A stretch of DNA of 64,000 nucleotides from an uncultured Rhodobacter sp. (GTDB taxonomy: Bacteria > Pseudomonadota > Alphaproteobacteria > Rhodobacterales > Rhodobacteraceae). Of this stretch, positions 21,083-37,414 are shown in pieces. The position numbers and the translations under genes are program-made. Within the stretch, counting starts at the first letter, position 1, and each line of letters begins with the position of its first letter. The notes under the pieces were generated by a model. It was not told the DNA's origin. It searched no databases and saw only the letters and a list, made by a program, of their open reading frames with translations. The DNA is taken from contig CAMFII010000003.1 of assembly GCA_945952585.1 (NCBI GenBank), positions 186,001-250,000 of the forward strand. The letters are read 5' to 3'.

Positions 21083-21868
21083 TCAGGCCGGCTTCTGCGC
21101 CTTCAGATGCGTCGGGCAATGCTCACCGGCCTCGAGCACGGGAACCATCCTTTCCCAGATCTCGACATTGTGCGCGACGAAATCCGCACCCAGTTCGCGG
21201 GCGACCTCGGCGCCGAGCGGCCCTCTCAGGCGGTCCAACTCGGCCTTCGCGACCTCGCGATACCAGGCATTTCGGCTGACGATCGCGATCTGCTCGAATC
21301 CGGCCTTGCGCATGGCATCCCCATAGCGGGCGGGCGAGGCCATGCCGAAATCCAGCCCTTCGGCGGCGATATAGGCCGCCATCGCCGGGCTGGGCGTCCC
21401 ATCATGGCCGATCAGCCAGTCCGAGGCTATGAACCAGCCGCCCGGCCTGAGCACGCGGAAGACCTCGCGCATCAGGGCGTGCTTGTCGGGAATATGGACG
21501 ATGGAATCCTTGGAAAAGACGATGTCGAAAGTGTCCGGCGGAAACGGCAGTGGGCCCGGAACGACCTTCACCAGCCCAATGCGTTCGCCCAGCCCGCGCC
21601 GTTCGACCAGTTGGCGGGCATGTCCGATTACGCCATCCTCGACATCGATGCCGGTGACGTAGCCGGCACCGTGGGCTTCGACCAGCGCGACGTCGATGCC
21701 ACCGGCGCCGCAGCCGATATCGAGCACAGACTTGCCCGCGACATCACTGCCCGCCACCAGCCGAGCCACCTCGTCCCGCCCGCCGGGAGACAGGAAGCCT
21801 TCGCCCCAGATCGCCGCGAGGATGCGGACCAGCTTGTCGCTGTAAAGCTCTTCCTCGTGCTCAGCCAT
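21083..21868 (-). CDS. Class I SAM-dependent methyltransferase, last gene of the amine operon
   Basis: 261 residues. Motif I is SVLDIGCGAGGIDVAL, followed by GIDVEDGVIGHARQL, FDIVFSKDSIVHIPDKHALMREVFRVLRPGGWFIASDW. The SKDSIVHIPDK segment resembles small-molecule N-methyltransferases of the phosphoethanolamine/sarcosine type, but this is weak evidence for substrate. I chose the ATG at 21868 over one 24 bp upstream. It overlaps the amidohydrolase by 8 bp and so is translationally coupled to it. A methyl-adding enzyme in an operon otherwise built for demethylation is unusual; it might act in a side reaction or on a related amine. Confidence 0.8.
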   Translation of the reverse strand: MAEHEEELYSDKLVRILAAIWGEGFLSPGGRDEVARLVAGSDVAGKSVLDIGCGAGGIDVALVEAHGAGYVTGIDVEDGVIGHARQLVERRGLGERIGLVKVVPGPLPFPPDTFDIVFSKDSIVHIPDKHALMREVFRVLRPGGWFIASDWLIGHDGTPSPAMAAYIAAEGLDFGMASPARYGDAMRKAGFEQIAIVSRNAWYREVAKAELDRLRGPLGAEVARELGADFVAHNVEIWERMVPVLEAGEHCPTHLKAQKPA

Positions 21869-23495
21869 CGAATCCCCCGTCCCGCCAGACATCGCGCCCC
21901 TTGAAGAGCGTCAGCAGGACCTTGGTCGCCGAAATCTCGTCCGGCGCGCAAGCAAAGATGTCCCGATCCAGCACGATGAGGTCGGCCGAGAACCCCGGCA
22001 AGAGGCGCCCGGTGCAATCGCCCCGCCAGCAGGCGGTCGCAGCATGGGCGGTATAGCCCAGTACGGCCTCCTCCACTGTGAGGCGCTCCTGCGGCAGGAA
22101 CGGTTCTTTCGGGCCCTCGTCGCGCCGTGCCTGCCGGGTTACCGCCGTCTCGATGATCTCGAAGGGGTTCAGGGTCGACACCGGCCAGTCAGAGGACAGG
22201 CACCAGTCGGCCCCTTCGTCCAGCATCCGGCGATAGGCATAGACTTCGGCCCGGCGCCCGGGGCCGATCATGTCCAGCGCGATGTCGGGGATCGTCGGGC
22301 TCAGTTGGGCCCAGAGCGTCTGGATATTCGCCATCGCCCCCACCCGTGCGATGCGGGCAAAGTCGGCGGGATCGACCAGTTGCAGGTGGGTCAACTGGTG
22401 ACAGGCAGGCCAGCGGCCATTGGCGGCAACCGCAGCCTCGAGCCCTTCGATCGCGGTCCGGGCGGCGGCATCGCCGATGACATGGACGTGGATCTGGAAC
22501 CGCGCCGCATCCAGCGCGACCATCAGCGCCTTGGTCTGTTCGGGAGTGAACATGGTCGGGCAGTTTCCGCCCGGCGGATCGGCATAGGGGGCCAGAAGCG
22601 CGGCGGTGCGGTTCTCGAACACGCCATCCATGAAGAACTTGGCCGATTGCACCCAGAAATCCGGCCCGGGATGGGCGGCGCGCATCGCGCTCAGACGAGC
22701 AACGGCTTCCTCGGGCGTGTCGTGTTCCTTGACCAGAGCCGCGCCTGACACCCGCAGGGTCAGTTCACCGCGTACGGCGGCGGTGCCGTAGATGCGGGTT
22801 TCGAGATCGGTTACCCTTGGGTCGATGACGCCGGTAATTCCGTGACGGTTGGCATGGGCCTGCCCGGCACGCAGGCCGTCGAGATAGTTCTCGTCGGTCA
22901 GTTGCGGCAACCGATCCAGCGCCCAGGCGATTGCATCCTCGTGCAGCATCCCCGTGGGTTCGCCTGACCCATCTGTCACGAAATGCCCGTTCACCGGATC
23001 TGGCGTGCCCTTGGTGATCCCGGCGAGTTCGAGCGCCCGCGAATTCAGGCAGGCATTGTGGAAGGAGCTGTCGTAAATCAGCGCGGGCCGGTCCGATACG
23101 ACGGCGTCGATGACATGGCGCGTCAGGTTGTGATCGCCGAAATGGCCCGGTTGCCAGCCGGCGCCGATGACCAGCGGCAGATTCTTGGCGTTAAGGGCAT
23201 GGGTGGAAATGGCCGACTGGAGGTCGCCAATGCTGGCGGCCTCGTAGAGGGGGGCCGCGGTCGCAAGGTCGGTGCCGCCTGAAAGAAGATGGATATGCGG
23301 ATCCTGAAAACCCGGCAGCACGAGCCGCCCACCCGCGTCGAGACGCTTCGCACCGGGATCCGCCAGGGCAAGGACCTCGGCTTCGCGGCCGAGCGCAACG
23401 ATCCGCTCGCCGCGGATCAGCAGGGCTTCGGCCGTCGGTCGCGCGACATCCATCGTCCGGATGCGGGCGTTGAGAACAAGAAGGTCAGTGCTCAT
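21861..23495 (-). CDS. YtcJ-type metal-dependent amidohydrolase
   Basis: 544 residues, the length of YtcJ/NfdA (amidohydrolase_3) enzymes. The TIM-barrel core shows the first metal motif PGFQDPHIHLLSGG (His-x-His), later HVHVIGDAA and THLQLVDPADF histidines, and the C-terminal SSDWPVSTLNPFE aspartate. The composite beta domain (NARIRTMD, ALLIRGERIVALG, GFSADLIVLDRD) flanks it. Relatives hydrolyse exocyclic amide or N-formyl bonds on varied small molecules; the substrate here is unknown. It overlaps the cupin gene by 4 bp and the methyltransferase by 8 bp. It may release an amine or formyl group in the operon's pathway. Confidence 0.87.
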   Translation of the reverse strand: MSTDLLVLNARIRTMDVARPTAEALLIRGERIVALGREAEVLALADPGAKRLDAGGRLVLPGFQDPHIHLLSGGTDLATAAPLYEAASIGDLQSAISTHALNAKNLPLVIGAGWQPGHFGDHNLTRHVIDAVVSDRPALIYDSSFHNACLNSRALELAGITKGTPDPVNGHFVTDGSGEPTGMLHEDAIAWALDRLPQLTDENYLDGLRAGQAHANRHGITGVIDPRVTDLETRIYGTAAVRGELTLRVSGAALVKEHDTPEEAVARLSAMRAAHPGPDFWVQSAKFFMDGVFENRTAALLAPYADPPGGNCPTMFTPEQTKALMVALDAARFQIHVHVIGDAAARTAIEGLEAAVAANGRWPACHQLTHLQLVDPADFARIARVGAMANIQTLWAQLSPTIPDIALDMIGPGRRAEVYAYRRMLDEGADWCLSSDWPVSTLNPFEIIETAVTRQARRDEGPKEPFLPQERLTVEEAVLGYTAHAATACWRGDCTGRLLPGFSADLIVLDRDIFACAPDEISATKVLLTLFKGRDVWRDGGFDG

Positions 23496-24379
23496 TCGAT
23501 GCTTCCCGAAGGCGAAATGCGCAGGGCCTCCAGCCTTGACCAGTCGTCTGCAGGCAGGACTGCGGCAGGTTCCATGACGTCGCGGGTCCAGCCGAAGATG
23601 CAGAGGAAAGGCACCGGGCCGACCTTGGTCAGATGCGGGGCGAAAGGATCGTTCCAGACCGGTTCATGCGCGCGTTTGACGACCAATGGCGTGCCCGGAC
23701 CGAAGCGCCAGCCATGTGGGCCGGTGAGTGGCGCGTAAAGCTCCGGCGCGGCATGGTTATGGTCGCGGTACAGCACATGCGGCGCAATCAGGAACAGGCC
23801 GATGTCGAAATCCTCGGCGGGAACTGGCGCCTCCTGACCGACGAGGCTGGCGAAGGCGTGGCCCTTGCGGAAATCCTCGCCGATCTGGTCCGGAGGATAG
23901 GAGTCGTAGGTGATCCACTGAAGAAGTGGCGCTGCGGCGGCAATTGCTGCGGCAAGCGCAGGGTGGGTTTGGGCCACTTGCGCCAGCGCAAGCTCGAGTT
24001 GGGCAGTCACGACCGCGTTTGCGTGTGGGGGCGAAAGTCTGACTGGGTTGCTGCGCGCCCGGGCCAGCCCCGTGCGCAATTCCCCGACCCCGGGGCAGGC
24101 TAGCCCGGACAAATAGAGATCCACTTCGTCCAGCAGGGCCCAGAAGGTTGCCTCGGGCGACGGGGCGGTCGGTGGCGGCAGGTCGCCGGCAAGACCGCGT
24201 TCGTTCAGCAAGACCATAGGATCCTCTCCATCACGGGGCGAGCAGATACGGAAAACCTCCAGCGCCTCGGGCGAAAGTCGGCCGGCGCGATTAAGCTGCA
24301 TCGCCGCGGCATAGCGCAGGCGGCCGGACCCCGGCACGCCCGGCGCCATTGTCAGCTGTGCAAGGAGGGTATCAGTCAT
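23492..24379 (-). CDS. Cupin of the DMSP-lyase (DddQ/DddL, DDDQL) superfamily
   Basis: 295 residues. The N-terminal about 170 are helical. The C-terminal cupin carries H207-x-H209-x3-E213-x-Y215 in DHNHAAPELYAPLTG, and a second motif with H249 in FAPHLTKVGPVPFLCIFGW. This His/His/Glu/Tyr spacing, plus the downstream His, is the metal and catalytic-Tyr arrangement of cupin DMSP lyases, which cleave dimethylsulfoniopropionate to acrylate and dimethyl sulfide. Many relatives do not act on DMSP, so I assign superfamily only. It lies 3 bp after the last permease gene and overlaps the amidohydrolase by 4 bp. A beta-elimination or isomerisation on an onium compound would fit the setting. Confidence 0.72.
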   Translation of the reverse strand: MTDTLLAQLTMAPGVPGSGRLRYAAAMQLNRAGRLSPEALEVFRICSPRDGEDPMVLLNERGLAGDLPPPTAPSPEATFWALLDEVDLYLSGLACPGVGELRTGLARARSNPVRLSPPHANAVVTAQLELALAQVAQTHPALAAAIAAAAPLLQWITYDSYPPDQIGEDFRKGHAFASLVGQEAPVPAEDFDIGLFLIAPHVLYRDHNHAAPELYAPLTGPHGWRFGPGTPLVVKRAHEPVWNDPFAPHLTKVGPVPFLCIFGWTRDVMEPAAVLPADDWSRLEALRISPSGSIE

Positions 24380-24382
24380 CCT

Positions 24383-25222
24383 TTACTCGTTGGCGCGATA
24401 CGCCAGTCGGATATCCGCGTCGCGGCGCTTCTCGGCGCGGGACATGACGATGCCGGCAATGATGACGCCCAGCCCAACGATGCAGACGATGATCGTGGCG
24501 AGTGCGTTGATGTCCGGTGTCACGCCAAGCTTGACCTTCGACCAGATCAGCAGCGGCAGGGTCGTATTGCCCGGCCCGGTGGTGAAGTTGGTGATGACCA
24601 CGTCATCCAGCGAGATGGTGAAGGCCAGCAGCCAGCCAGACAGGATTGCAGGGCTGATGATCGGCAGGGTGATGTCCTTCATCACCTGCCATGGCTTCGA
24701 TCCAAGGTCCATCGCTGCCTCCTCGATCGACTGATCGGCGGCGATCAGGCGCGAACTCACGATCGTGGCGACGAAGGTCATCGAAAACGTGATGTGGGCG
24801 ATCGTGACGGTTGTGAACCCCCGGCTTGCCGGCCAGCCGATCCACTGGCCCATCAGGATGAACAGCATCAGCGACGAGATGCCGGTGATCACCTCGGGCA
24901 TGATGAGCGGGGCTGTGATCAGGCCCGAGAAAAGCACGCGCCCGCGGAATTTCTTGAACCGCGCCAGAGCGATGCCGGCCATCGTGCCAAGAATTGTTGC
25001 GCACGTGGCGGACAGAAGCGCGATCTGAAGTGAAAGGATCGCCGCGCTGATCACCTGCTTGTTGCTGAACAGCGTGACGTACCACTTGGTCGAGAATCCG
25101 CCCCAGACCGTCGCCAAGCGCGAGGCATTGAAGGAATAGACGATCATCGACAGGATCGGGATGTAGAAGAATGCGAACCCGAAGCAGAGCACGGTGATAA
25201 GGAAGACCGGGCGGCGGTTCAT
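24383..25222 (-). CDS. ABC transporter permease, PotI/PotC type
   Basis: 279 residues with six predicted membrane helices, the first being FLITVLCFGFAFFYIPILSMIVYSF. The EAA loop is in the form EEAAMDLGSKPWQVMKDITLPIISPAILSG, and the typical PotC/I motif SLDDVVITNFTTGPG follows. It forms the inner-membrane channel with the partner permease encoded just upstream (4-bp overlap). PotI-type systems import putrescine, spermidine or other small cationic and zwitterionic amines; the cargo is judged from the neighbouring catabolic genes, not from this sequence. Confidence 0.9.
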   Translation of the reverse strand: MNRRPVFLITVLCFGFAFFYIPILSMIVYSFNASRLATVWGGFSTKWYVTLFSNKQVISAAILSLQIALLSATCATILGTMAGIALARFKKFRGRVLFSGLITAPLIMPEVITGISSLMLFILMGQWIGWPASRGFTTVTIAHITFSMTFVATIVSSRLIAADQSIEEAAMDLGSKPWQVMKDITLPIISPAILSGWLLAFTISLDDVVITNFTTGPGNTTLPLLIWSKVKLGVTPDINALATIIVCIVGLGVIIAGIVMSRAEKRRDADIRLAYRANE

Positions 25223-26175
25223 GGCTCGTCCTTCATCCGTTCTTGGGCCTTTGCGTCGAAATGCGTGTAAAGCATCATCGGCACGACCAGCAGGAGAAGC
25301 AGGGCGACCGCGACGGATGATGCCATCGGCCAGTCGCGCGCACTGGCGAATTCATCCGAAATCACCCGACCGATCATCGGCTGCGAGGAATTGCCCACGA
25401 GCGACGGGATGATCAGCTCACCCGCGGCAGGGATGAAAACCAGCAGCCCGCCCGCGATGATGCCCGGGATCGACAGCGGCAGCGTCACGTCAAGGAAGAC
25501 CTGGAACGGCCGCGAGCCAAGGTCCATCGCCGCCTCGTCCAGCGTCTGGTCCAGTTTTTCCAGATTGGCGAAGAGCGGCAGGATCATGAAGGGCAGGTAG
25601 GAATAGACCATGACAAGCACGACGGCGAAGTTCGTGTTCATCATCGGGATCGACCGGAGCGCCCAGTCGGTGGGCACCACCCAGTTCCAGATCGAGGTCA
25701 GACCACGATTGAACCAGCTGTTGTTGCTCATCAGGCCCATCCACGCATAGACGCGCAGAAGGAACGAGGTCCAGAACGGCAGGATGACCAGCATCAGAAG
25801 GATGTTCCGCCATGCTCGCGACACCCGGGTCAGGCCAAGGGCCATCGGATAGCCGATGAGAAGGCACAGCATCGTGGCCACCAGCGCGTTGACCACCGAG
25901 GTCAGGAAGGCGCGGATGTAGAGACTGTCCTGGAACAGCCGCTTGTAGCCATCGAGGTTGACCAACGGATGTTCGCCCCCGAACGAAAACGGCGGGGCTG
26001 TTGGCGTCCTGGTCGCGAAGCTCATGGCAACGACGATGATGAAGGACAGGAAGAAGAACACCAGCAACCAGATGTAGGGCGTGGCGATGATGACATCTGA
26101 CCAGCCCCGGCGGTTGAACCAGTTGGCCAGTCCCTTGCGCTGTGGCGGCGCGTCGGTCTGTTCGATCACTGCCAT
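25219..26175 (-). CDS. ABC transporter permease, PotH/PotB type
   Basis: 318 residues. After a 25-residue cytoplasmic leader come six membrane helices, the first being IATPYIWLLVFFFLSFIIVVAMSF. The EAA loop reads DEAAMDLGSRPFQVFLDVTLPLSIPGIIAGGLLVF, followed by IPAAGELIIPSLVG, a PotH hallmark. It starts 3 bp after the ATPase gene and overlaps the second permease by 4 bp, so the transporter subunits should be made in balance. Confidence 0.9.
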   Translation of the reverse strand: MAVIEQTDAPPQRKGLANWFNRRGWSDVIIATPYIWLLVFFFLSFIIVVAMSFATRTPTAPPFSFGGEHPLVNLDGYKRLFQDSLYIRAFLTSVVNALVATMLCLLIGYPMALGLTRVSRAWRNILLMLVILPFWTSFLLRVYAWMGLMSNNSWFNRGLTSIWNWVVPTDWALRSIPMMNTNFAVVLVMVYSYLPFMILPLFANLEKLDQTLDEAAMDLGSRPFQVFLDVTLPLSIPGIIAGGLLVFIPAAGELIIPSLVGNSSQPMIGRVISDEFASARDWPMASSVAVALLLLLVVPMMLYTHFDAKAQERMKDEP

Positions 26176-26178
26176 GGG

Positions 26179-27324: not shown

Positions 27325-27332
27325 TCACCCGA

Positions 27333-28433
27333 TCATTCGGTCTTGATCGCCGTCCAGGCCCGCGTGATCGCACGGTCCTGCTCCTCGTTCAGCGGCTTCG
27401 GGGCCCAGAGGCGCTTGATCGTCTCTTCGTCGGGATAGACTGCCGGGTCGTTCAGGATCGCTGGATCGACGAAGGGTTTCGATGCGAGATTCGCGTTGGC
27501 GTAGGCCGTGTAGTTGGTGCAGGCCGCGATCACCTCGGGCTGCAGCAGGAAGTCGAGGAAAGCATAGGCGTTGTCGACGTTCGGCGCGTCCGACGGAATG
27601 GACATCACGTCGATCCAGGCTGGCGCCCCGGTCTTGGGCACGAAATAGGCCAGGTTCATCTGAACCCCGGCTTCCGCGGCGCGCGACTTGGCGACTGCAT
27701 AATCCCCCGACCAGTTGTTGATGACGCACAGTTCGCCATTGGGAATGGCGTTCAGGTAGTTCTGGTTGTCGAAGGTGCGGATGTATTGGCGGATCGGCTT
27801 GAACGCCTCGACCACCTTGTCATAGTCGGCGACATTCGTCGTATCGCCGTCCAGGCCGAGATAGCGCAACACCATCAGCATGATGTCGGTGGGGCTGTCC
27901 AGGAGCGAGATCCCGCAGTCCGCAAGCTTTGCCGCGTTTTCCGGCTTGAACACGAGATCCATGCTCTGGAGGTCGGCGTCGGGAATGCGCTCTTTCACCA
28001 TGTCGACGTTGTAGGTGAACCCAACCGAGCCCCACATATAGGGAATTGAGTGCTCCGAGCCCGGATCCCAGCCCTCGACGATGCGCAGGATTTCCGGATC
28101 GAGGTTCTTCCAGTTGGGCAATTTCGATTTATCGAGCTTGGTATAGACGCCAGCCTTGATCATCTGGGGCTGCGACATCCCGGCGGTGAAGGCCACATCA
28201 TAACCCGTGCCTCCCGCCAGCATCTTCGCCTGCATCTCTTCGGCGGAGGAGTAGGTGTCGTAGACCACGCCGATTCCTGTGGCAGCTTCGAAATCGGCAA
28301 GGGTGGTTTCGCCGATATAGTCAGCCCAGTTGTAGACATTGACGCTCCCGGCCTGCGCCCAGGAGGGGCGGACGTAGGGCAGCGCAAGTGCGCCGCCCAG
28401 GGCGGTGATGGCCCGACGTCTGTTGAGTTTCAT
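27333..28433 (-). CDS. Periplasmic substrate-binding protein, PotF/PotD type
   Basis: 366 residues. The N-terminus has a twin-arginine-like NRRRAITALGGALALPYV followed by a cleavage-type SWAQA, so export may be by Tat. The mature start VNVYNWADYIGETTLADFEAATGI is diagnostic of the PotD/PotF polyamine group. MWGSVGFTYN and NNWSGDYAVA are family segments. Ligand specificity cannot be assigned: members bind putrescine, spermidine and other organic cations. A GGGGAGAAA site stands 8 nt before the ATG at 28433. It follows the Rieske gene by 54 bp, the largest gap in the operon, which contains a GC hairpin. Confidence 0.9.
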   Translation of the reverse strand: MKLNRRRAITALGGALALPYVRPSWAQAGSVNVYNWADYIGETTLADFEAATGIGVVYDTYSSAEEMQAKMLAGGTGYDVAFTAGMSQPQMIKAGVYTKLDKSKLPNWKNLDPEILRIVEGWDPGSEHSIPYMWGSVGFTYNVDMVKERIPDADLQSMDLVFKPENAAKLADCGISLLDSPTDIMLMVLRYLGLDGDTTNVADYDKVVEAFKPIRQYIRTFDNQNYLNAIPNGELCVINNWSGDYAVAKSRAAEAGVQMNLAYFVPKTGAPAWIDVMSIPSDAPNVDNAYAFLDFLLQPEVIAACTNYTAYANANLASKPFVDPAILNDPAVYPDEETIKRLWAPKPLNEEQDRAITRAWTAIKTE

Positions 28434-29697: not shown

Positions 29698-30831
29698 CTA
29701 CACCTCCACGGCCGCGAGACGGCCCAGAACCCATTGATGGAACCGGTGAATGTCGAATTCCTGCGGCATCAGCCGCCCCTTCGAGTATCGCGAAGACTTC
29801 AGCCCGCGCTGGTTCATCTCGCAGGCCGCACCGTCTTCAAGAACCACGGTGGTGGCAAAATCCGTCACTGCGGCGAGGTCGAAGCCCGGCTGGTCAAGCG
29901 TCGTCTGCGGGAAGAGCCATTCGATCGTGAGCTTGGTCTCTTCGGGCCCGATTGGGGTCAGGCTGACGGACCGCGCGTAATCGACATGGGCGACGACGAA
30001 CATGGTCGGGTAGATGGTCACGAAGTTGAAGCCATTGGCCCGTTCCTGCGACGTCAGGCCGGGAAACTCGGGCCCGCAGGGTTCGCCGCTGACAGTCCAG
30101 CTGTGCGCGCCGTCTTTCAACACCGGACCTGTCGGCACCTCGGGCGTCCAGTCAGGAGACTCCGAGGCCGACATGATCCCCTTCTTGTAGATCGGCACCA
30201 TGTCGCACAGGCTCGGGTGAACCGAGGGGCAGTGCAGGCATTCGTTGTAGTTTTCCCAGAAGATCTTCCAGTTGCAGGCCAGCGTCTTTTCCAGCCGGTG
30301 GCCTGTCACGAGTTCTGCCATCGGCCAGTTGTCGAGGGCGTTCAGGCCAAGGTCGGGCGTCAGCTCCGGGGCCTGATCGGCAAGCGACAGGAACAGGAAA
30401 CCGTTCCATTCCTTCACATGCACCGCGAACAGGCTGTGGTCCTCCTTGCGGAAGTCGTCAGTCGGCGTGGCATGGGCGACAGAGACCAGCCGCCCGTCGG
30501 TCGCGTAGGCCCAGGCGTGGTAGGGGCAGGTGATGAGCTTGCCGAGCGGCTTTTCCGCGACAGAGCATAACTCGGCGCCGCGGTGACGGCAGGTGTTGTG
30601 GAAAGCAGTCACCTTGCCGGCCGGATCCCGGCAGAGGATCAGGTTCTCGCCTGCCACCGTGACCCTGCGCATTGTTCCCGGCTTCAGGTCGTTCAGGCGT
30701 CCGGCATAGACCCAGTCCTGCGCCCAGATCGCCCGTCGCTCGCGGTCGAACCAGCCGGCATCGAAATAGGCTGATGCGGGAAGGCTTTCCGGGCAATGGT
30801 TAAGCAGCGGCGATTGGGCATGGACGGTCAT
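29698..30831 (-). CDS. Rieske oxygenase, GbcA/stachydrine-demethylase-like alpha subunit
   Basis: 377 residues. Rieske ligands are C81-x-H83 (CRHRG) and C102-x2-H105 (CPYHAW). The mononuclear iron site is in FWENYNECLHCPSVHPSL (Asn/Glu and two His). The CPYHAWAY form and the NYNECLHCP motif match the group containing glycine betaine demethylase GbcA, choline monooxygenase and stachydrine demethylase, all acting on quaternary amines. This is the best single clue to the operon's substrate class. It sits 9 bp after the GcvT-like gene, a typical partner for capturing released C1 units. The ATG at 30831 is preceded by GAGGTG. Confidence 0.88.
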   Translation of the reverse strand: MTVHAQSPLLNHCPESLPASAYFDAGWFDRERRAIWAQDWVYAGRLNDLKPGTMRRVTVAGENLILCRDPAGKVTAFHNTCRHRGAELCSVAEKPLGKLITCPYHAWAYATDGRLVSVAHATPTDDFRKEDHSLFAVHVKEWNGFLFLSLADQAPELTPDLGLNALDNWPMAELVTGHRLEKTLACNWKIFWENYNECLHCPSVHPSLCDMVPIYKKGIMSASESPDWTPEVPTGPVLKDGAHSWTVSGEPCGPEFPGLTSQERANGFNFVTIYPTMFVVAHVDYARSVSLTPIGPEETKLTIEWLFPQTTLDQPGFDLAAVTDFATTVVLEDGAACEMNQRGLKSSRYSKGRLMPQEFDIHRFHQWVLGRLAAVEV

Positions 30832-30840: not shown

Positions 30841-32046
30841 TCAGAACGGGGCCGGCGGTGTCGTCCGCCGGCGGGGTGGCGCGAAGAAGGGGCGTTCGCA
30901 GACGCGGGCAGGCAACATCAGCTTGGCATATTGCAGCTCGCGCAGGGCATAGACCTCGACGAACAGGTTGCCGCTCTCGTGGTAGGGGCGGCGCACCTGG
31001 GCGAGTGCGATATTGCGCTTGGCCGAAGGGGACCAGCAGGCGGCAGTCACGGTGCCGACCTCGGTCTTGCCATTCTGGTAGATGATCGACCCTTCGACCG
31101 AGACGTTGCCGTCGATATCGAGCCCAACCAGCGCCCATTTCGAACTCTTGTTCACTTTTTCCTTCAGCAGGGCCCGGCGGCCGGTGAAGTGGCCCTTGTC
31201 GAAATCCACCATCCATTCGAGGCCCAGCTCGAAGGGCGACCGCGCCCGATCTTCGCGCACGGCCTGGTCCACCGGGATGAAGTCCAAGTTGGTGATGATG
31301 AACCCGGCCTCGATCCGGGCGATGTCGAGGGCATGTGTGCCGATCGGCCGGATGCCCCACGGTGCGCCCGCCGCGAAAAGATGATCCCACAGCGCGATGG
31401 CGTGGGCGGGCGTCGTCCAGAGTTCATAGCCCAGATCGCCCGTGAAGCCGGTACGCGAGATCATCACCTCGCCACCGTCGAAGGGGAACGTCCGCATCCG
31501 GAACGGCTTCAAGTCCGCCACATCGAACCCTGCGGCCTTCAGGACCGAATAGGTGCACGGCCCCTGCAAAGACAGAGCCGCCACGTCTTCCGTTTCTTCG
31601 ACGATCGCGACCTCGTACCCGATCGCGCTGTCCAGGAGCCAGGGCAGGTGTCGCTCCTGGCAGCAGATGCGGTAATCGGTCGGCCCCAGCCGGAACAGCG
31701 TGCCGTCATCGATCACCTTGCCGGCGTCGTCGCACCAGATGGTGTAATGCACGCCGCCGACCGAGAGCTTCGAGGCATTCCGCACCGTCAGCCGGTCAAG
31801 ATAGGCGGCGGCATCGGGGCCGGTCACCCGGTACTTCACCATCGGGCAGAGGTCGTAGACCGAGGCGGTATTGCGGATGGCGCTGTGCTCCATTGCCGTA
31901 TCGCCGAAGCTGAGCGCGGTGGTGTAGCCAGCCCAGGGCCCCCAGTCGTTCAACCGGTTCTCCGCCGCAGTGCGCGGATGGAACGGCGTCTGTTTCAGTG
32001 GCGTCAGGTAATGCAGCCGGGGGTCCGTTGTCTTCATGACGTTCAT
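30841..32046 (-). CDS. GcvT/DmdA-superfamily folate-dependent aminomethyltransferase-like protein
   Basis: 401 residues. The GCV_T fold is recognised from SVYDLCPMVKYRVTGPDAAAYLDRLTVRN, LSLQGP, SRTGFTGDLGYELW and the ALDIARIEAGF segment. The C-terminal barrel includes GRRALL and VGTVTAACWSPSAKRNIALAQV. Members transfer methyl or methylene groups to tetrahydrofolate, as in glycine cleavage T protein, dimethylglycine oxidase and DMSP demethylase. DmdA identity is not supported. The last about 20 residues are Arg/Pro-rich and look like a loose tail. I chose the ATG at 32046 (GGGAGG 7 nt upstream), which overlaps the preceding stop as ATGA. Confidence 0.85.
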   Translation of the reverse strand: MNVMKTTDPRLHYLTPLKQTPFHPRTAAENRLNDWGPWAGYTTALSFGDTAMEHSAIRNTASVYDLCPMVKYRVTGPDAAAYLDRLTVRNASKLSVGGVHYTIWCDDAGKVIDDGTLFRLGPTDYRICCQERHLPWLLDSAIGYEVAIVEETEDVAALSLQGPCTYSVLKAAGFDVADLKPFRMRTFPFDGGEVMISRTGFTGDLGYELWTTPAHAIALWDHLFAAGAPWGIRPIGTHALDIARIEAGFIITNLDFIPVDQAVREDRARSPFELGLEWMVDFDKGHFTGRRALLKEKVNKSSKWALVGLDIDGNVSVEGSIIYQNGKTEVGTVTAACWSPSAKRNIALAQVRRPYHESGNLFVEVYALRELQYAKLMLPARVCERPFFAPPRRRTTPPAPF

Positions 32047-33602
32047 GCCCGGACCTCCCGGAGGATGCGTTCCGCGGCGTTCCAGCCGGCCGCGCCGGAA
32101 ATGCCGCCGCCCGGGTGACACCCCGCGCCGGCGAGCCACAGCCCTTCGATCGGCGTCGCATATTGAGCGATCCCGGCAATGGGCCGCAGGAACAGCATCT
32201 GCTCGACCGACAACTCGCCATGATGCCAGTTGCCGCCGACCATGCCGTAGCGCGCCTCGATATCGTAGGGCATCAGCAGCTCGGCATGGGTGATAAGCGA
32301 CCGGATGCCCGGCGCATGTTCCTCCAGCATCGCCAGAGTGTTCTCCAGCATCTCGGCCCGGGCCGCGTCCGGCCCGGCCTTGGGCTTGTGTGGCGCGAAT
32401 TGCACGACGGCGGAGAGGACGTGCTGCCCGGTCGGGGCAAAGCCCGTTTCATGCGCTGAAGGGATCACGATCTCCATCACCGGGCGCTTCGGCACTTCGC
32501 CGTATTTGACGGCGTTGTAGGCCAGTTCCACCTGGTCGTCCGACGGCGCGATCACAAGGCGCGACTTCAGGTCAGCGCCACGGAAGTCCGGCGCCGCCTT
32601 CAGCGCAAGGTGCAGCTTCGCGGCCGCGCCGCGCGATTTCTGGTCGCCGATGCACTTGACGAATCCGGCGTCGAGATGACGGGGACCAATCAGTTTAAGG
32701 AAAGTGGTCTTCGGGTTCATCGCCGAGACGACGAGTTTCGCCCGCACCTCCTCGCCGTTTGCCAGCGTTACGCCAACTGCCTTGTCGTCCTCGATCAGCA
32801 GGCTGTCGACCGCCGCGCCGGTGCGGACAACAACGCCGGACGCCGCCGCCGACTTCACCATCGCTTCGGCGACCGCAGCCATGCCGCCCTTCGGCAGCGC
32901 CAGCGTGGCGCGTTGGCCCGCAACCTCGCCCGACAAGCGGTTGAGCAGCAGGATCAGCGAATTCGGCGAGCGCGGCCCAAGCCAGGAGCCGAGCGTCGCG
33001 TCGAAGGTCAGCAGGCCCTTCAGCCGCTTGTCCGTCAACTCGTCGTTCACCACGTCATAGACGTTGATGAGGATCATCCGCAGAAACTCGCGGAAATCGG
33101 CCTTGCCGAGCATCCGCAGGTTCAGACCGAACTTCGCGAGCTTGCCGAATTCATTGCCCGCTCCCTTGGCGATGCGCGGCGCGGTAATCTGCTTGAACGG
33201 GGCCAGCACCTCGGCAAAGGACAGGAGCTGCTTGCGCAGGGCCAGCCAGTTCTTGCGGTCGGCGTCCGACAGGTTGCCCTTGATGCTGGCACCTGCCGCG
33301 CCCTCCAGCACCAGATGGTCGCCGGTTGCCGACAGGGCGGTTGAACTGACACTGGACGTCACGAAGCCAAGCCCGTGGCGCGCCAGGTCCATGCCCGACA
33401 TCACCCGGTTGTCGATCTGGTTGGCGACATGCGCGAGGCCGGGCGAACGGAAGCCGGGTGCGAATTCATGCCCCAAAGCCGCACCTCCGGCAGCCGCAGC
33501 GGACTCCAGCACCAGAACCTTGCGGCCCGAGGATTGCAGCCGGTGCGCCGCGGCAAGGCCGTTGGTCCCGCCGCCGATCACGATCACATCAAAGGACGGC
33601 AT
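32043..33602 (-). CDS. FAD-dependent oxidoreductase, phytoene-desaturase/PYROXD2 type (copy 1)
   Basis: 519 residues. The N-terminal dinucleotide fold is VIVIGGGTNGLAAAHRLQSSGRKVLVLESAAAAGGAA, and the C-terminal FAD segment is GLWLAGAGCHPGGGISGAAGWNAA. The family includes carotenoid desaturases, but isolated members in catabolic operons act as amine or C-C dehydrogenases of unknown substrate. No carotenoid genes are nearby, so a pigment role is unlikely. It overlaps copy 2 by 14 bp and the GcvT-like gene by 4 bp. Similarity to copy 2 is clear in architecture and end motifs, but the middle is diverged, suggesting a heterodimer or two successive steps. Confidence 0.85.
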   Translation of the reverse strand: MPSFDVIVIGGGTNGLAAAHRLQSSGRKVLVLESAAAAGGAALGHEFAPGFRSPGLAHVANQIDNRVMSGMDLARHGLGFVTSSVSSTALSATGDHLVLEGAAGASIKGNLSDADRKNWLALRKQLLSFAEVLAPFKQITAPRIAKGAGNEFGKLAKFGLNLRMLGKADFREFLRMILINVYDVVNDELTDKRLKGLLTFDATLGSWLGPRSPNSLILLLNRLSGEVAGQRATLALPKGGMAAVAEAMVKSAAASGVVVRTGAAVDSLLIEDDKAVGVTLANGEEVRAKLVVSAMNPKTTFLKLIGPRHLDAGFVKCIGDQKSRGAAAKLHLALKAAPDFRGADLKSRLVIAPSDDQVELAYNAVKYGEVPKRPVMEIVIPSAHETGFAPTGQHVLSAVVQFAPHKPKAGPDAARAEMLENTLAMLEEHAPGIRSLITHAELLMPYDIEARYGMVGGNWHHGELSVEQMLFLRPIAGIAQYATPIEGLWLAGAGCHPGGGISGAAGWNAAERILREVRA

Positions 33603-35205
33603 AGGCTTCGCTCATGTCTTTGGTCGGCGCGCGCAGGTCGCGCAGGATTTCCGAGGCCGCGTTGCGCCCCGGCGCGCCCATCACGCCGCCGCCCGGATGG
33701 GTGGACGATCCGCAAATCCACAGATCCTTGATCGGGCTGCGATACTGGGCGCAGCCGGGAACCGGACGGTTGAACAGAAGCTGGTCGAAGGTCAGTTCGC
33801 CCTGGAAGATGTTGCCTTCGGTCAGGCCCACTTCCTTCTCCAGTTCGCGCGGCGTGCGGACCTCGACATGCAGGATCGAGTTCTTGAAGCCCGGCGCATA
33901 CTTCTCGATCTGGTCGAGGCAGGCCCTGGCGAACCCGTCGCGGTCGGCATCGGTCCAGTCGTTCCCCTCGATCTTTGGCGGAGCATACTGGACGAAGCAG
34001 GACATGAAGTGCTTGCCCGGCGGGGTCATGGTCGGGTCGATCATCGTCGGGATCATCATGTCCTGGAACGGATCGGCGCTGTAATGACCCGCCTTCCAGT
34101 CGTCGTAGGCGCGTTCCATCTTCTCGATCGAGTCGGTGAAGTGCATGTCGCCCTTCATGTGCGGCGAATTCGGCGGCAGCGCGGTGAAGGTTGGCGCGCA
34201 ATCGAGCGCGATGTTCAGCTTGCCCGAAGACCCTCGGATCTTGAACGCCTTGACGCGCTTGACGAAATCGCCGGGAAGCTCGTCCTCGTCGACATGGCGA
34301 AGGAAGGTGCGCTTGACGTCCATGTTGGAGACGACGCGCTTGCCGTGGACCTCGTCGCCGTTTTCCAGCGCGACGCCGACGGCGCGGCCGTTCCGGATCA
34401 GGATCTTCTCGACCCCGTTGCCCGCGCGCACCTCGCCGCCGGCTGCCTCCAGCGAGGCCTTCAGCGCCTTGGTGATCGACCCCATCCCGCCCCGGGCAAA
34501 GCCCCAGGCGCCGACGTTGCCATCGACATCTCCCATGGCGTGATGCAGCAGCACATAGGCCGTGCCGGGTGACATCGGCCCCAGAGCCGTGCCGATGATC
34601 GAAGCGACGGCCTGATAGGCCTTCACGGTCGGATGCTCGAAATACTCATCCAGGAAGTCGCCGATCGACATCGTCCAGAAGCGGATCATGTCGTACATCG
34701 CCGCTTCCGACAGGCCGAACATCTGCTTGCCTAGCCAGGCAAGCTCCGAAAGGTCTCGCGGGCGGAAACTTGACGGATCGGGGGCGGTGCGCAGCAGCAT
34801 CGGCCGGATGAAGCGGCAATGCCGCAGCACGTCACGAGCGTAACGGTCATAGGCCTCTGCATCGCGCTTGGAATGGCGGGCGAATTCGCGCCGGTTGGCG
34901 TCGTGGTCGCGGTGCATGCCCAGGTAGTCGCCGTTCTCCATGAATACGGCGCCACCTTCGTAGGGCAGGATCTGCAGCCCGAATTTCGGCAGTTCGAGAT
35001 CGCGCATGATCTCGGGACGGAACAGCGAGGCGACGTAAGAACAGTTGGAATAGGTGAAGCCGGGATAGAGCTCACGGCTGACCGCCGCGCCCCCGATCCA
35101 GTCGTTCTTTTCCACGACGCAGACCTTCAGGCCCGCCCGCGCCAGATAGCAGGCCGCGACAAGGCCGTTATGGCCCGCCCCGACGATAACCGCATCGTAG
35201 ATCAT
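33589..35205 (-). CDS. FAD-dependent oxidoreductase, phytoene-desaturase/PYROXD2 type (copy 2)
   Basis: 538 residues. FAD-binding start AVIVGAGHNGLVAACYLARAGLKVCVVEKNDWIGGAA; end motif LWICGSSTHPGGGVMGAPGRNAA. The middle contains GTAYVLLHHAMGDVDGNVGAWGFARGGMGSITKAL, typical of the PYROXD2-like subgroup of NAD(P)/FAD oxidoreductases. The reaction is unknown. It starts at 35205 and overlaps the aminotransferase stop by 4 bp. A weak purine-rich stretch stands upstream, so it probably depends on translational coupling. Confidence 0.86.
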   Translation of the reverse strand: MIYDAVIVGAGHNGLVAACYLARAGLKVCVVEKNDWIGGAAVSRELYPGFTYSNCSYVASLFRPEIMRDLELPKFGLQILPYEGGAVFMENGDYLGMHRDHDANRREFARHSKRDAEAYDRYARDVLRHCRFIRPMLLRTAPDPSSFRPRDLSELAWLGKQMFGLSEAAMYDMIRFWTMSIGDFLDEYFEHPTVKAYQAVASIIGTALGPMSPGTAYVLLHHAMGDVDGNVGAWGFARGGMGSITKALKASLEAAGGEVRAGNGVEKILIRNGRAVGVALENGDEVHGKRVVSNMDVKRTFLRHVDEDELPGDFVKRVKAFKIRGSSGKLNIALDCAPTFTALPPNSPHMKGDMHFTDSIEKMERAYDDWKAGHYSADPFQDMMIPTMIDPTMTPPGKHFMSCFVQYAPPKIEGNDWTDADRDGFARACLDQIEKYAPGFKNSILHVEVRTPRELEKEVGLTEGNIFQGELTFDQLLFNRPVPGCAQYRSPIKDLWICGSSTHPGGGVMGAPGRNAASEILRDLRAPTKDMSEAYAVL

Positions 35206-36554
35206 GCGCGCTTCGCTTCTTCTTCAAAATGCTCGAGTGTCAGGTCAACCGCCGTCTCGACCGCCTTGAGCGTGTCGGTCAGGCAGGTTTCGTCCAGCCC
35301 ATGCGCCTCGCACATGAACCACGGCTCGCGCGAGTCGGGCTCGCAGATCACGCCGAGGTCGTGCAGGAAATAGGCCATCTGGTCGTAGAACGAGTAATCC
35401 GAGGTCTTCCAGTCGCGGTAATTGTCCGGCGGGGTTTCCGCGAAGAACAGGCCGAACATCGACGGGTGGCCGGTGTAGGAGTGGACGATGCCATGGGCGT
35501 CGAGGATCCTCGAGATGCCGCCCTTCAGCCGCTCGCCGTAATTCGCAAGGGTTTCCAGCGCAGGGGTCTCGTCAAGGATGCGCAAGCACTCCTCGGCCGC
35601 CGCGAGCGACACGGAATGCGCCGTGTAGGTGCCGCCATGCGAGGCGCCGCCATACTTGAAGGTGCGCATCACCTCCTCGCGCCCCGCCACGACCGAGATC
35701 GGGTAGCCGTTGGCGACCGCCTTGGCGAAGGTGGTGATGTCGGGTTTCACGCCCATGATCCCCTGGATGCCGCCCTTGCCGACGCGGAACCCGGTTTTGA
35801 CCTCGTCGATGATGAGCATGACGCCGTACTGGTCGCACAGCCTGCGGGCCAGCCGGACATACTCGACCTGGGCGAGGATGCCGCAGCAGTTTCCCTGGAT
35901 CGGCTCGATCAGCATCGCGGCCAGCTTGTCGCCGTGCTTTCGGAACACGTCCTCGAGTCGCTCGAAATCGTTCATCGGCGTGATGTGGGCCAGCTTCTTG
36001 ACGGTCGGCGGGATGCCCTTGCCATAGGGAACAAGCTCGGGATCCTTGTTCGATCCGATGTCCCATTCCTCCATGTTCGACATCCACATCGCCGCGTCGA
36101 ACAGGCCGTGATAGCCGCCTTCGACCAGCAGATAGCTTTCGCGCCCGGTATAGGCGCGGGCCAGCCGCAGGGCCGCCATCACCGCCTCGGTGCCCGAGTT
36201 GGAAAAGCGCACAAGCTCTGCCGCCGGCACCATTTTGGCGATGCGGTCCGCGACGATCAGCTCCCGCTCGGTCGACAGCGCAAAGACGCCGCCGACTGCC
36301 ATGCCCTTGCGGGCGGCTGCGTCCACACGATCATCGGCATATCCCAGGATCGCCGGGCCGTAACCAAGGCGGTAATCTACATAGGCGTTGCCGTCGATGT
36401 CCCAGGTGCGGCCTCCCTTGCCGTGATCGACATAGATCGTCCGGTCGTCGCCCCAGTAACGGAAGGTCGACGAGACCCCGAGCGGCAGCCGTTTCACCGC
36501 TTTCTGGAACTGTGCATTCGACTTCGCGAGGTTTCGCGTTGGCAGGCGGGTCAT
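35202..36554 (-). CDS. Class III PLP-dependent aminotransferase, glutamate-1-semialdehyde-aminomutase-like
   Basis: 450 residues. PLP contacts are SNSGTEA (118-124), D250 in LIIDEVKTGFR, and the Schiff-base lysine K278 in DITTFAKAVANGYP. Overall it resembles HemL, but the usual HemL motif around the lysine (GKIIGGGxP) is replaced. It is therefore likely a catabolic omega-aminotransferase or aminomutase, not the heme enzyme. It is the promoter-proximal gene of the 13-gene operon. I chose the ATG at 36554, with AAGGA about 10 nt upstream and the sequence then matching the family; the frame is open to 36644. Confidence 0.85.
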   Translation of the reverse strand: MTRLPTRNLAKSNAQFQKAVKRLPLGVSSTFRYWGDDRTIYVDHGKGGRTWDIDGNAYVDYRLGYGPAILGYADDRVDAAARKGMAVGGVFALSTERELIVADRIAKMVPAAELVRFSNSGTEAVMAALRLARAYTGRESYLLVEGGYHGLFDAAMWMSNMEEWDIGSNKDPELVPYGKGIPPTVKKLAHITPMNDFERLEDVFRKHGDKLAAMLIEPIQGNCCGILAQVEYVRLARRLCDQYGVMLIIDEVKTGFRVGKGGIQGIMGVKPDITTFAKAVANGYPISVVAGREEVMRTFKYGGASHGGTYTAHSVSLAAAEECLRILDETPALETLANYGERLKGGISRILDAHGIVHSYTGHPSMFGLFFAETPPDNYRDWKTSDYSFYDQMAYFLHDLGVICEPDSREPWFMCEAHGLDETCLTDTLKAVETAVDLTLEHFEEEAKRA

Positions 36555-36610: not shown

Positions 36611-36644
36611 TCAAATCATCCGATGATTTTGACTGAACTGTCAA
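36611..36644. promoter_or_regulatory. Candidate TetR/BetI-type operator overlapping the operon promoter
   Basis: Two inverted repeats are adjacent. AAATCAT/ATGATTT with a 3-bp centre lies at 36613-36629, extendable to TCAAATCAT and ATGATTTTGA. TTGAC/GTCAA with a 6-bp centre lies at 36629-36644. On the minus strand TTGACA (36639-36644) and GATGAT (36615-36620) at 18-bp spacing form a plausible promoter for the aminotransferase operon. A repressor bound here would block it. The site also lies 93-126 bp upstream of the regulator's own start, allowing autoregulation. Confidence 0.6.
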
Positions 36645-36736
36645 TCAGAATCTATCTTGACCGCTGCCGCTACCTTGCTCTTTCCTGAGCCGGCGAATGC
36701 CCTATGAAGAGCCAATGATCTTGTCGGGACACAAGT

Positions 36737-37414
36737 ATGGCCGTTGCCCAGTCCATTCCGTCGTCAGAAACGCCCGGGGAAAAGGGTGAGCCGGCTCGCC
36801 GCAAGCAAAGCCGGGAAGAGCGGCGCAGTCAGCTGATCGAAGCAACCATCGAAACCATCGCCCTGCGCGGCTACGCCCGAACGACCTTGAGCGAGGTTGC
36901 AAGGACCGCCGGCCTGTCGCATGGCCTGGTCAATTTCCATTTCGAGACCAAGGAAAAGCTGCTGGAAGAAACCCTCGCCTTCCTGGCCGAGGAATACCGG
37001 GAAAACTGGCAAGCCGCTTTGGCCACTGCGGCCCCGGAACCGGCCTCGCAGCTCGACGCGCTGATCCGGGCTGATTTCGAACCGGCGATCTGCACACCAT
37101 CGCGCTTGTCGGCCTGGTGCGCCTTCTGGGGCGAGGCGCAGAGCCGGCCGCTCTACCAGGAACGCTACGGCGCAAATGACGAAGCCTACAACCGGAACAT
37201 GGAGCAGATCTGTGCCCGTCTGATCGCGACTGGCGGCTACTCGGGGTCGGCCGAGCGGACGGCGCGCGTCGTCCGCGTCACGGTCGAGGGCGTCTGGCTC
37301 GACATGATGACGATGCGCGATCCCTATCCGAGGGAGGAAGGGCTGCGCACTGTGCATACCTGTGCCGCGGCCTTCTTCCCCCGCCATTTCAGCGAAGATG
37401 GGCTGATCGGCTGA
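36737..37414 (+). CDS. TetR-family repressor with BetI-type C-terminal domain
   Basis: 225 residues. The helix-turn-helix is at about 30-80 (RRSQLIEATIETIALRGYARTTLSEVARTAGLSHGLVNFHFETKEKLL). The ligand domain contains RLSAWCAFWGEAQSRPLYQERYGANDEAYN, a pattern typical of the BetI-type TetR_C group. BetI itself responds to choline, and related proteins respond to other amines, which supports a quaternary amine inducer. It is divergent from the 13-gene operon across 182 bp containing the inverted repeats at 36611-36644. The Shine-Dalgarno is weak (CGGGA). Confidence 0.85.
   Translation: MAVAQSIPSSETPGEKGEPARRKQSREERRSQLIEATIETIALRGYARTTLSEVARTAGLSHGLVNFHFETKEKLLEETLAFLAEEYRENWQAALATAAPEPASQLDALIRADFEPAICTPSRLSAWCAFWGEAQSRPLYQERYGANDEAYNRNMEQICARLIATGGYSGSAERTARVVRVTVEGVWLDMMTMRDPYPREEGLRTVHTCAAAFFPRHFSEDGLIG

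What the first reader, a model, noticed from the sequence alone, without database searches (positions are those of the whole stretch)
21083..37414. Thirteen-gene amine catabolic and uptake operon under a BetI-type regulator
Thirteen minus-strand genes overlap or lie within 54 bp of each other. They are a class-III aminotransferase, two flavoproteins, a GcvT-like protein, two Rieske oxygenases, a PotFGHI importer, a DMSP-lyase-family cupin, an amidohydrolase and a methyltransferase. A BetI-type TetR is divergent. I do not know this full combination as a described pathway. A GbcA-like Rieske, a folate methyl acceptor and a BetI-like sensor point to demethylation of a quaternary or N-methylated compound, with the flavoproteins and aminotransferase acting on the freed amine. 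Betaines such as pyridinium betaines (homarine, trigonelline), proline betaine or carnitine-like molecules are candidates only.
Basis: partly seen in the sequence, partly recalled or inferred. Interest (0 to 1): 0.9.

Follow-up and report, generated by a model that had tools for sequence, protein, structure and literature searches.

The report
Conserved methylated-amine uptake and catabolism operon
A tightly packed set of 13 bacterial genes, kept together in related bacteria and sharing its own control switch, probably imports and breaks down a methylated, polyamine-like nitrogen compound whose identity is not yet known.

Summary
In detail: 13 minus-strand genes (21083-36554) with spacings of -32 to +54 bp and a divergent BetI-like TetR. 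The block recurs: Fuscovulum ytuae carries all 13 in the same order, and FAD1-FAD2-GcvT follow each other in 92 of 98 related loci with room to look. A 26-bp palindrome in the divergent promoter (36626-36651) is kept in 22 of 23 operon-type loci; a second copy in this genome sits directly before an unlinked class-III aminotransferase gene.
Best reading: uptake and catabolism of an N-methylated, probably quaternary, amine with a second cationic end, that is a methylated di- or polyamine. The importer keeps the putrescine amine-binding residues but has a changed distal pocket; Rieske 1 has the quaternary-ammonium Cys pair in 20 of 20; related clusters carry PuuC- and PuuA-like genes, an MttB-family gene and a TmpA/butyrobetaine-type dioxygenase, most below equivalog cut-offs. 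The substrate is inferred, not shown; a monocationic betaine is the main rival. No Rieske reductase of the usual kind was found. I found no published pathway.

The parts
35202..36554 (-). A: class-III aminotransferase (GSAM/GntE-like, 450 aa)
   Evidence: PF00202 210.5 bits; NF041362 GntE 443.6 against cut-off 525, hemL 332.7 against 527.3; PLP Lys kept in 32 of 32, window included
33589..35205 (-). B: FAD1, CrtI/CrtO-like flavoprotein, best conserved gene of the module
   Evidence: NF045689 299.6 bits against cut-off 1000; AlphaFold model pLDDT 81.7; nearest folds carotenoid desaturases, then nicotine oxidoreductase and monoamine/putrescine oxidases among others
32043..33602 (-). C: FAD2, related CrtI/CrtO-like flavoprotein
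   Evidence: NF045689 204.2 bits against cut-off 1000; follows B and precedes D in 92 of 98 loci
30841..32046 (-). D: free-standing GcvT-like folate-domain protein (401 aa)
   Evidence: PF01571 197.7 bits; start by ATGA overlap; best solved relative the C-terminal half of TMAO demethylase 9q5a, 183 bits, with VIDDGTLF aligned to VDD/IDD of Tdm and T-protein
29698..30831 (-). E: Rieske oxygenase 1, Group V-type
   Evidence: PF00355, PF00848; Rieske motif and E-C-x-H-C in 20 of 20, window included
28488..29696 (-). F: Rieske oxygenase 2, without the Cys pair
   Evidence: PF00355, PF00848; no Cys pair in 40 of 40, Rieske motif in 39 of 40
27333..28433 (-). G: PotF-like periplasmic binding protein
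   Evidence: NF007962 340.8 bits against cut-off 636; solved SpuD and PotF chains 311-345 bits (the name SpuD is recalled); pocket residues
26179..27324 (-). H: PotG-like ATPase
   Evidence: NF008621 439.8 bits against cut-off 613; TIGR01187 potA over its cut-off, 390.9 against 355.6
25219..26175 (-). I: PotH-like permease
   Evidence: NF007963 284.8 bits against cut-off 489
24383..25222 (-). J: PotI-like permease
   Evidence: NF007889 334.9 bits against cut-off 476
23492..24379 (-). K: DMSP_lyase-family cupin
   Evidence: PF16867 71.9 bits against cut-off 27; HxHxxxExY in 16 of 16, window included; weak match to a DMSP lyase of known structure, 5cu1, 27.8 bits
21861..23495 (-). L: Amidohydro_3 hydrolase
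   Evidence: PF07969 289.2 bits; D-x-H-x-H and H-x-IGD in 9 of 9, window included
21083..21892 (-). M: SAM-dependent methyltransferase
   Evidence: PF08241 70.4 bits; found in 52 of 115 core loci, four duplicate loci counted in the 115
36737..37414 (+). R: BetI-like TetR regulator, divergent
   Evidence: PF13977 and PF00440; TIGR03384 104.3 against cut-off 201.3
36626..36651 (.). Operator-like palindrome ATTCTGATTGACAGTTCAGTCAAAAT (minus strand) in the divergent promoter
   Evidence: 21 of 22 consensus positions; 16 or more of 22 in 22 of 23 type 1 loci, window included

Best explanation
An operon under a BetI-like repressor for uptake and catabolism of an N-methylated, probably quaternary, di- or polyamine: a cation with a free primary ammonium at one end and methylated nitrogen at the other, for example an N-trimethyl-diaminopropane or -putrescine type compound. 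Proposed working: (1) the PotF-like binding protein grips the free ammonium end and lets the methylated end lie in a changed distal pocket; PotG/H/I-like parts import it. (2) A class-III aminotransferase (A, and/or the unlinked one that carries the same operator elsewhere in the genome) removes the terminal amine, and a PuuC/BADH-like aldehyde dehydrogenase encoded elsewhere makes an omega-(methylated-ammonio) acid. (3) Rieske 1, and perhaps Rieske 2, oxidises the quaternary nitrogen. (4) The FAD1/FAD2 pair oxidises the remaining N-methyl groups and the free-standing GcvT-like protein passes the carbon to tetrahydrofolate, a split version, with other flavoproteins, of the plan in which an oxidising domain is fused to a GcvT domain. 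(5) The cupin may eliminate an amine from a beta-ammonio acid to give acrylate, as DMSP lyase does with DMSP. SHOWN by computation: gene content, conservation, family matches and motifs, pocket residues, the conserved palindrome. INFERRED: every reaction, the order of steps, repression, the substrate.
For: Same 13 genes in order in F. ytuae; B-C-D in order in 92 of 98 loci. Binding protein: equivalents of D247, D278, W244, R254 kept and W at 276 in 18 of 18 type 1 relatives, W37, D39, Y314 in 17 of 18 (the other cell an alignment gap), and all of these in 6 of 6 others; E185 is D in 18 of 18, position 87 is L/M/I in 14 of 18, position 88 is S/G/D/A in 18 of 18 (window protein not counted; residue roles from PMC8666671, passages). 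Rieske 1 E-C-x-H-C 20 of 20 (PMC10952381). Related clusters carry PuuC/BADH-like aldehyde dehydrogenases (529-558 bits in four full-length ones, cut-off 850), PuuA-like ligases (209 and 211, cut-off 650), acyl-CoA ligase and dehydrogenase, AcuI (487.9 over cut-off 440), a TmpA/BBOX-like dioxygenase (360.7, cut-off 400) and an MttB-family protein (PF06253 192.3 bits). Of 19 long type 1 loci, 3 hold an aldehyde dehydrogenase 35-38% identical to that of Kiloniella and one a PuuA-like ligase at 39%. The PRK07036-type aminotransferase is in 57 of 111 loci, A in 34, both in none. Operator in 22 of 23 and before an unlinked PRK07036 gene (696.9, cut-off 618) in this genome; a like site stands before that gene in 8 of 12 genomes with the operon and 0 of 5 without (Fisher p 0.029). 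FAD1 model: carotenoid desaturases first, amine oxidases high in the list.
Against: No direct evidence for any substrate. No PF00970 and only one PF00175 protein at E 0.001 in the whole genome, so the usual GbcB/CntB-type reductase seems missing. No aldehyde dehydrogenase in the operon itself; the best PuuC-like one lies on another contig in another catabolic set. In the one type 2 binding protein aligned, the acidic residues at PotF positions 39 and 278 look lost, so the module is not always tied to polyamine-like cations. K, L and M are optional (12, 8 and 9 of 19 long type 1 loci by my gene calls). PotF pocket acids are commonly kept in PotF homologues at large (PMC8666671), so their presence is weak evidence that the ligand is unusual. 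4 of 12 operon genomes lack the site before the unlinked aminotransferase. Neighbour genes were picked because they stood by the core, with no control neighbourhoods; some fit no polyamine reading (TonB receptor, guanidino-acid decarboxylase).
Confidence: 0.5

Rival explanations
1. One reading: catabolism of a monocationic betaine (proline betaine, carnitine- or butyrobetaine-like, pyridinium betaine), with the Pot-type importer simply recruited.
For: Rieske 1 Group V Cys pair; BetI-like regulator; MttB-family and TmpA/BBOX-like genes in relatives; the one type 2 binding protein aligned lacks polyamine-binding acids; a 41% FAD1 homologue beside GcvT, BKACE and hydroxyacyl-CoA dehydrogenase in Shinella sumterensis.
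Against: The window's own binding protein keeps the proximal amine site acids and aromatic box; genes like those of polyamine catabolism in relatives; a class-III aminotransferase in 91 of 111 loci, which betaine routes do not need at the start.
Confidence: 0.27
2. Catabolism of an N-methylated guanidino compound (methylated agmatine or arginine type).
For: A is most like guanitoxin transaminase GntE; beside the core in L149 a 5-guanidino-2-oxopentanoate decarboxylase (686.3 bits, cut-off 500) and a GntC-like PLP enzyme, and two genes of nearly the same sizes in the same places in L151 (not scanned).
Against: Seen only there, at the edge and on the other strand; guanidines need no Group V Rieske; A does not reach the GntE cut-off (443.6 against 525).
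Confidence: 0.1
3. Ordinary polyamine (putrescine/spermidine) catabolism.
For: Pot-type importer and Puu-like or PRK07036-type neighbours.
Against: Does not explain two Rieske oxygenases, the GcvT-like protein, the MttB-family gene or the BBOX-like dioxygenase, nor the altered distal pocket.
Confidence: 0.07
4. Catabolism of a sulfonium compound related to DMSP.
For: DMSP_lyase-family cupin with the metal motif; GcvT-like protein distantly like DmdA (120.1 bits); AcuI-like gene in the genome (422.2 bits against cut-off 440) and AcuI in L137.
Against: The cupin is optional; the GcvT-like protein is much closer to TMAO demethylase (264 bits) than to DmdA; an amine importer and aminotransferases would have no role.
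Confidence: 0.06

Closest known systems
Group V Rieske quaternary-ammonium monooxygenases (CntA, GbcA, Stc2)
   Same: Rieske 1 has the [2Fe-2S] motif, bridging Glu and the adjacent Cys-x-x-Cys (PMC10952381, passages)
   Different: Far under the GbcA equivalog cut-off (160.6 against 670); no CntB/GbcB-type reductase found in the genome; Rieske 2 lacks the Cys pair
TMAO demethylase / dimethylglycine dehydrogenase plan (oxidising domain fused to a GcvT domain)
   Same: D is closest to the GcvT half of TMAO demethylase; likely oxidising partners are encoded next to it
   Different: Not fused; the partners are a pair of CrtI/CrtO-like flavoproteins
PotFGHI putrescine importer
   Same: Full-length match to PotF chains (311-320 bits), proximal acids and aromatic box kept
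   Different: Distal pocket changed (E185D, S87 to mostly hydrophobic, F88 to small); under the PotF equivalog cut-off (340.8 against 636)
Puu and SpuC polyamine catabolism (the labels SpuC and PuuD are recalled)
   Same: PuuA- and PuuC-like genes, a glutamine amidotransferase that could be PuuD-like (154.5 bits to PRK07053, cut-off 250), and PRK07036-type aminotransferases in related clusters
   Different: None of the Puu genes is in the window's operon; the Puu-like matches are under the equivalog cut-offs
DMSP lyases (PF16867 cupins)
   Same: K passes the Pfam cut-off and keeps the metal motif
   Different: In an amine operon; the domain covers only residues 106-259 of 295; activity unknown
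stc/hpb proline-betaine clusters (recalled)
   Same: Rieske plus amine demethylation
   Different: The OYE-type flavoprotein recalled for those clusters is absent from this operon, though an OYE-type gene is in 10 of 115 related loci

Membership tests
Group V Rieske monooxygenase (Rieske 1) | Rieske CxH...CxxH, bridging Glu, adjacent Cys-x-x-Cys | tested here: met
   20 of 20, window protein included; feature from PMC10952381
Group V Rieske monooxygenase (Rieske 2) | Cys-x-x-Cys beside the bridging Glu | tested here: not met
   0 of 40 with 50% identity or more; the paper says the pair is in some Group V enzymes, so this does not exclude Rieske 2 from the group
Group V Rieske system | CntB/GbcB-type FNR reductase | tested here: not met
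   No PF00970 in the genome at E 0.001; one PF00175 protein of 296 aa
Glycine betaine monooxygenase GbcA | NCBIfam equivalog cut-off | tested here: not met
   160.6 (E) and 124.0 (F) against 670
BetI choline repressor | NCBIfam equivalog cut-off | tested here: not met
   104.3 against 201.3
PotF-type polyamine-binding protein | Proximal acids D39/D247 and aromatic box | tested here: met
   residue roles from PMC8666671; S38 is A in the window protein and S or A in type 1 relatives
PotF-type polyamine-binding protein | Distal site as in PotF (E185, S87, F88) | tested here: not met
   E185 is D in 18 of 18; S87 kept in 0 of 18; F88 kept in 0 of 18; D278 is kept
Folate-dependent GcvT family | GCV_T domain with the conserved Asp stretch | tested here: met
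   PF01571 197.7 bits; VIDDGTLF aligned to VDD/IDD in solved relatives; a regex count over relatives failed and is not used
DMSP lyase cupin | PF16867 cut-off and HxHxxxExY metal motif | tested here: met
   the role of the motif is recalled
DMSP lyase cupin | Lyase activity on DMSP | not testable with these tools
   Needs purified protein
GntE / glutamate semialdehyde aminomutase | Equivalog cut-offs | tested here: not met
   443.6 against 525; 332.7 against 527.3
Homarine or trigonelline catabolism | Published marker genes | not tested
   No paper with the genes was seen in two listings

The most novel reading that the evidence does not exclude
A so far undescribed bacterial pathway for quaternary or N-methylated polyamines, built round a new kind of amine demethylase: two CrtI/CrtO-like flavoproteins working as a pair with a separate GcvT-like folate protein. 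In some lineages it ends with a DMSP-lyase-family cupin that makes acrylate from the nitrogen analogue of DMSP, and in others with an acyl-CoA ligase/dehydrogenase route. The cupin (15 of 111 loci) and the dehydrogenase (11) or ligase (6) never share a locus.
Probability: 0.27. Interest if true: 0.8.

Novelty: new variant of a known kind. Interest (0 to 1): 0.6.

Why it matters
The FAD1-FAD2-GcvT core is not confined to one lineage: in the best 80 named loci of a FAD1 scan it is seen in Rhodobacterales, Hyphomicrobiales, Rhodospirillales-like and gammaproteobacterial genomes. No held paper that I found assigns it a substrate. If it handles methylated polyamines it would open a nitrogen and one-carbon sink not covered by marker genes for choline, betaine and TMA, and would give a new enzyme plan for folate-linked demethylation. 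The operator-like site and the binding protein make the question directly testable.

Tried and rejected
Literature: no published cluster with this content found (search listings); homarine genes were not seen in these listings, so homarine could not be tested as such. Looking for a linked Rieske reductase: none; ferredoxin-like PF00111 hits exist elsewhere (5 places) and were not followed. The idea that A and the PRK07036-type enzyme are simple replacements (never together in 111 loci) is weakened by the window's own genome, which has A in the operon and a PRK07036 gene under the same kind of site; two transaminations, one per end, is an alternative. The idea that every cluster handles polyamines was dropped after reading one type 2 binding-protein alignment. 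A regex for the GcvT Asp found nothing in 87 of 101 and was discarded. A first Rieske regex also failed on all and was replaced. My first operator test on the unlinked aminotransferase genes read the wrong strand for five loci and was repeated with another, shorter palindrome. My gene caller missed some genes that tblastn finds (for example C, E, K and R of L001; compare), so presence counts are lower bounds. L166 (ALDH, OYE-like, amidohydrolase paralogue) turned out to be another catabolic cluster. L075, fetched for a 39% methyltransferase relative, holds no such operon, nor does L002.
Full report
What is there. Thirteen minus-strand genes at 21083-36554 form one unit with spacings of -32 to +54 bp, with a TetR gene divergent at 36737-37414. 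From upstream: A class-III aminotransferase, B and C CrtI/CrtO-like flavoproteins, D GcvT-like protein, E and F Rieske oxygenases, G-J a PotFGHI-like importer, K DMSP_lyase-family cupin, L Amidohydro_3, M methyltransferase.

Conservation. In F. ytuae all 13 genes and the TetR stand in the same order. In 394 genomes of the family, 49 hold a FAD1 relative at E 1e-100 or better; 20 of them (own included) at 70% identity or more, 19 at 61-64% and 10 at 37-41% (counted by eye). I fetched the other 19 of the first group and G003 from the window's genus. By tblastn, 5 of these 20 loci (F. ytuae among them) hold all 13 plus TetR and 11 of 20 hold A to J without a gap; several others are cut by contig or stretch ends (counted by eye). 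K, L and M are the variable end. Of the 61-64% group ('type 2') I fetched 11 of 19; they keep B-C-D and mostly M and the regulator, but have another aminotransferase and another binding protein, and in some an OYE-type flavoprotein, further Rieske genes, a PhyH or (L060) an MttB-family gene. A named-genome scan gave 80 loci, among them Mesorhizobium, Shinella, Rhizobium, Kiloniella and gammaproteobacterial MAGs. Over 98 non-duplicate loci with room downstream, B is followed by C and D on the same strand in 92.

What travels with the core. I scanned 20 neighbouring proteins, most from Kiloniella, Aestuariispira and gammaproteobacterial loci: PuuC/BADH-like aldehyde dehydrogenases, PuuA-like ligases (209 and 211 bits, under the cut-off of 650), a glutamine amidotransferase, acyl-CoA dehydrogenase and ligase, enoyl-CoA hydratases, an AcuI over its cut-off (487.9 against 440) and a Fe/2OG enzyme near TmpA and butyrobetaine dioxygenase (360.7 against 400). 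These were chosen because they stood next to the core, and no control neighbourhoods were scanned. Others fit no polyamine reading or fit a rival: a TonB receptor, a guanidino-acid decarboxylase and a GntC-like enzyme in L149, an HpnE-like flavoprotein in L088, and one protein without a match. By blastp, the PRK07036-type aminotransferase (I call it SpuC-like from memory) is in 57 of 111 loci, A in 34, both in none, neither in 20. At least one Rieske, MttB, PhyH or TmpA-like gene is in 60 of 95 loci of 12 kb or more, and a Pot-like ATPase at 40% identity or more in 80 of 95. In the window's own kind (19 long type 1 loci) an aldehyde dehydrogenase at 35-38% to the Kiloniella one is near in 3, and a PuuA-like ligase at 39% in 1.

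The binding protein. Residue roles in PotF come from PMC8666671 (passages): proximal site S38, D39, D247; aromatic box W37, W244, F276; distal S85, S87, A182, E185, D278, L348. I mapped these by hand from the alignment. In 18 type 1 relatives D247, D278, W244, R254 and W276 are invariant and W37, D39 and Y314 are kept in 17, the other cell being a gap; E185 is D in all, S87 is never kept (L/M/I in 14), and F88 is S, G, D or A in all. In 6 more distant relatives the D39, D247, D278 and aromatic residues are also kept, but S87 and F88 mostly remain as in PotF (4 and 5 of 6). I read this as a ligand with a free ammonium at one end and a bulkier, less polar group at the other. PMC8666671 reports that D39, D247, D278 and E185 are 96% or more conserved in 250 PotF homologues, so keeping the acids is not special, while E185 changed to D in every type 1 protein is. 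The one type 2 binding protein aligned (L058) looks to have lost the acids at positions 39 and 278.

Demethylation. PMC10952381 (abstract and passages) names a Cys-x-x-Cys next to the catalytic iron as a mark of some Group V, quaternary-ammonium, Rieske enzymes. Rieske 1 has it in 20 of 20, Rieske 2 in 0 of 40. The GcvT-like protein is closest to the folate half of TMAO demethylase. The FAD1 model (pLDDT 81.7, low at 464-479 and 501-507) matches carotenoid desaturases first, with nicotine oxidoreductase, monoamine oxidases and putrescine oxidase among the best 50, together with other members of the superfamily. This allows but does not prove amine oxidation.

Regulation. A palindrome, ATTCTGATTGAC-N4-CAGTCAGAAT in consensus, lies between A and R (36626-36651, 21 of 22 positions). 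Scored on the promoter region it reaches 16 or more of 22 in 22 of 23 type 1 loci (window included), 1 of 12 type 2 and 7 of 27 other loci; no shuffle (20 per locus) passed 15. The consensus was written from the same loci, so the type 1 count is partly circular; the sharp drop in type 2 is the informative part. In the window's genome a 19-position pattern with up to 3 mismatches occurs three times: here, upstream of an isolated aminotransferase gene (2 mismatches, C11), and once at C4 with 3 mismatches (not followed); the reversed control pattern occurs zero times. The unlinked gene is a PRK07036 equivalog (696.9 against 618) and 47% identical to the aminotransferase inside type 2 clusters. 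Among 30 genomes, 11 of 15 with the operon and 5 of 15 without have this gene at E 1e-120; a palindrome scoring 11 or more of 14 stands upstream in 8 of 12 operon genomes (own included) and in 0 of 5 others (Fisher p 0.029, no correction for kinship, pattern chosen after seeing the first site). Three of the five negatives are in the same genus with 81-82% identical genes. Absence of the operon in the 15 controls rests on the Rieske 1 search.

Reading. Importer, aminotransferases, flavoproteins, quaternary-amine-type oxygenase and folate protein fit an N-methylated, dicationic amine best. The order of steps is open; the cupin step to acrylate rests only on family membership, the metal motif, and the finding that cupin loci (15 of 111) and acyl-CoA dehydrogenase (11) or ligase (6) loci do not overlap, which also follows lineage. 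The main gap is the electron source for the Rieske proteins.

Verdict. A real, conserved, probably co-regulated catabolic operon of unknown substrate. New variant of a known kind, with a possibly new demethylase module.

Noticed in passing
window 37434-38783 (-): Di-haem oxidoreductase (DHOR, PF06537, 274.3 bits) directly beyond the regulator.
   Followed up: no
window 20265-21119 (-): RadC-like gene whose longest ORF overlaps the end of the operon by 37 bp; a later start is likely.
   Followed up: no
L057-L066, L071, L074: Type 2 clusters: same B-C-D core but PotD-like binding protein and PRK07036-type aminotransferase, in some with methyltransferase M, an OYE-type flavoprotein, PhyH or an MttB-family gene; probably another methylated amine.
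   Followed up: partly
L149:18285-21058 and L151:11492-14271: In L149 a 5-guanidino-2-oxopentanoate decarboxylase and a GntC-like PLP enzyme beside the core; two genes of nearly the same sizes in the same places in L151 (not scanned).
   Followed up: no
L076: Shinella sumterensis plasmid: a 41% FAD1 homologue next to GcvT, BKACE, hydroxyacyl-CoA dehydrogenase and enoyl-CoA hydratase, a carnitine-like setting.
   Followed up: no
L166 (G000:C1:302000-318000): Own genome: PuuC-like ALDH, LysR, OYE-like flavoprotein, Amidohydro_3 paralogue (30% to L), DUF1028 and a Liv-type importer together.
   Followed up: partly
whole genome G000: Seven PF00848 match places (six proteins by position) but no PF00970 reductase domain at E 0.001; the Rieske electron donor is unexplained.
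   Followed up: partly
L072:20383-20628 and 33 other loci: A small (about 81 aa) protein without a Pfam match right after GcvT, found in 34 of 115 core loci, most of them rhizobial.
   Followed up: no
L163 / G000:C11:90104-90126: Second operator-like site of the genome, directly before an isolated PRK07036-type aminotransferase gene.
   Followed up: yes
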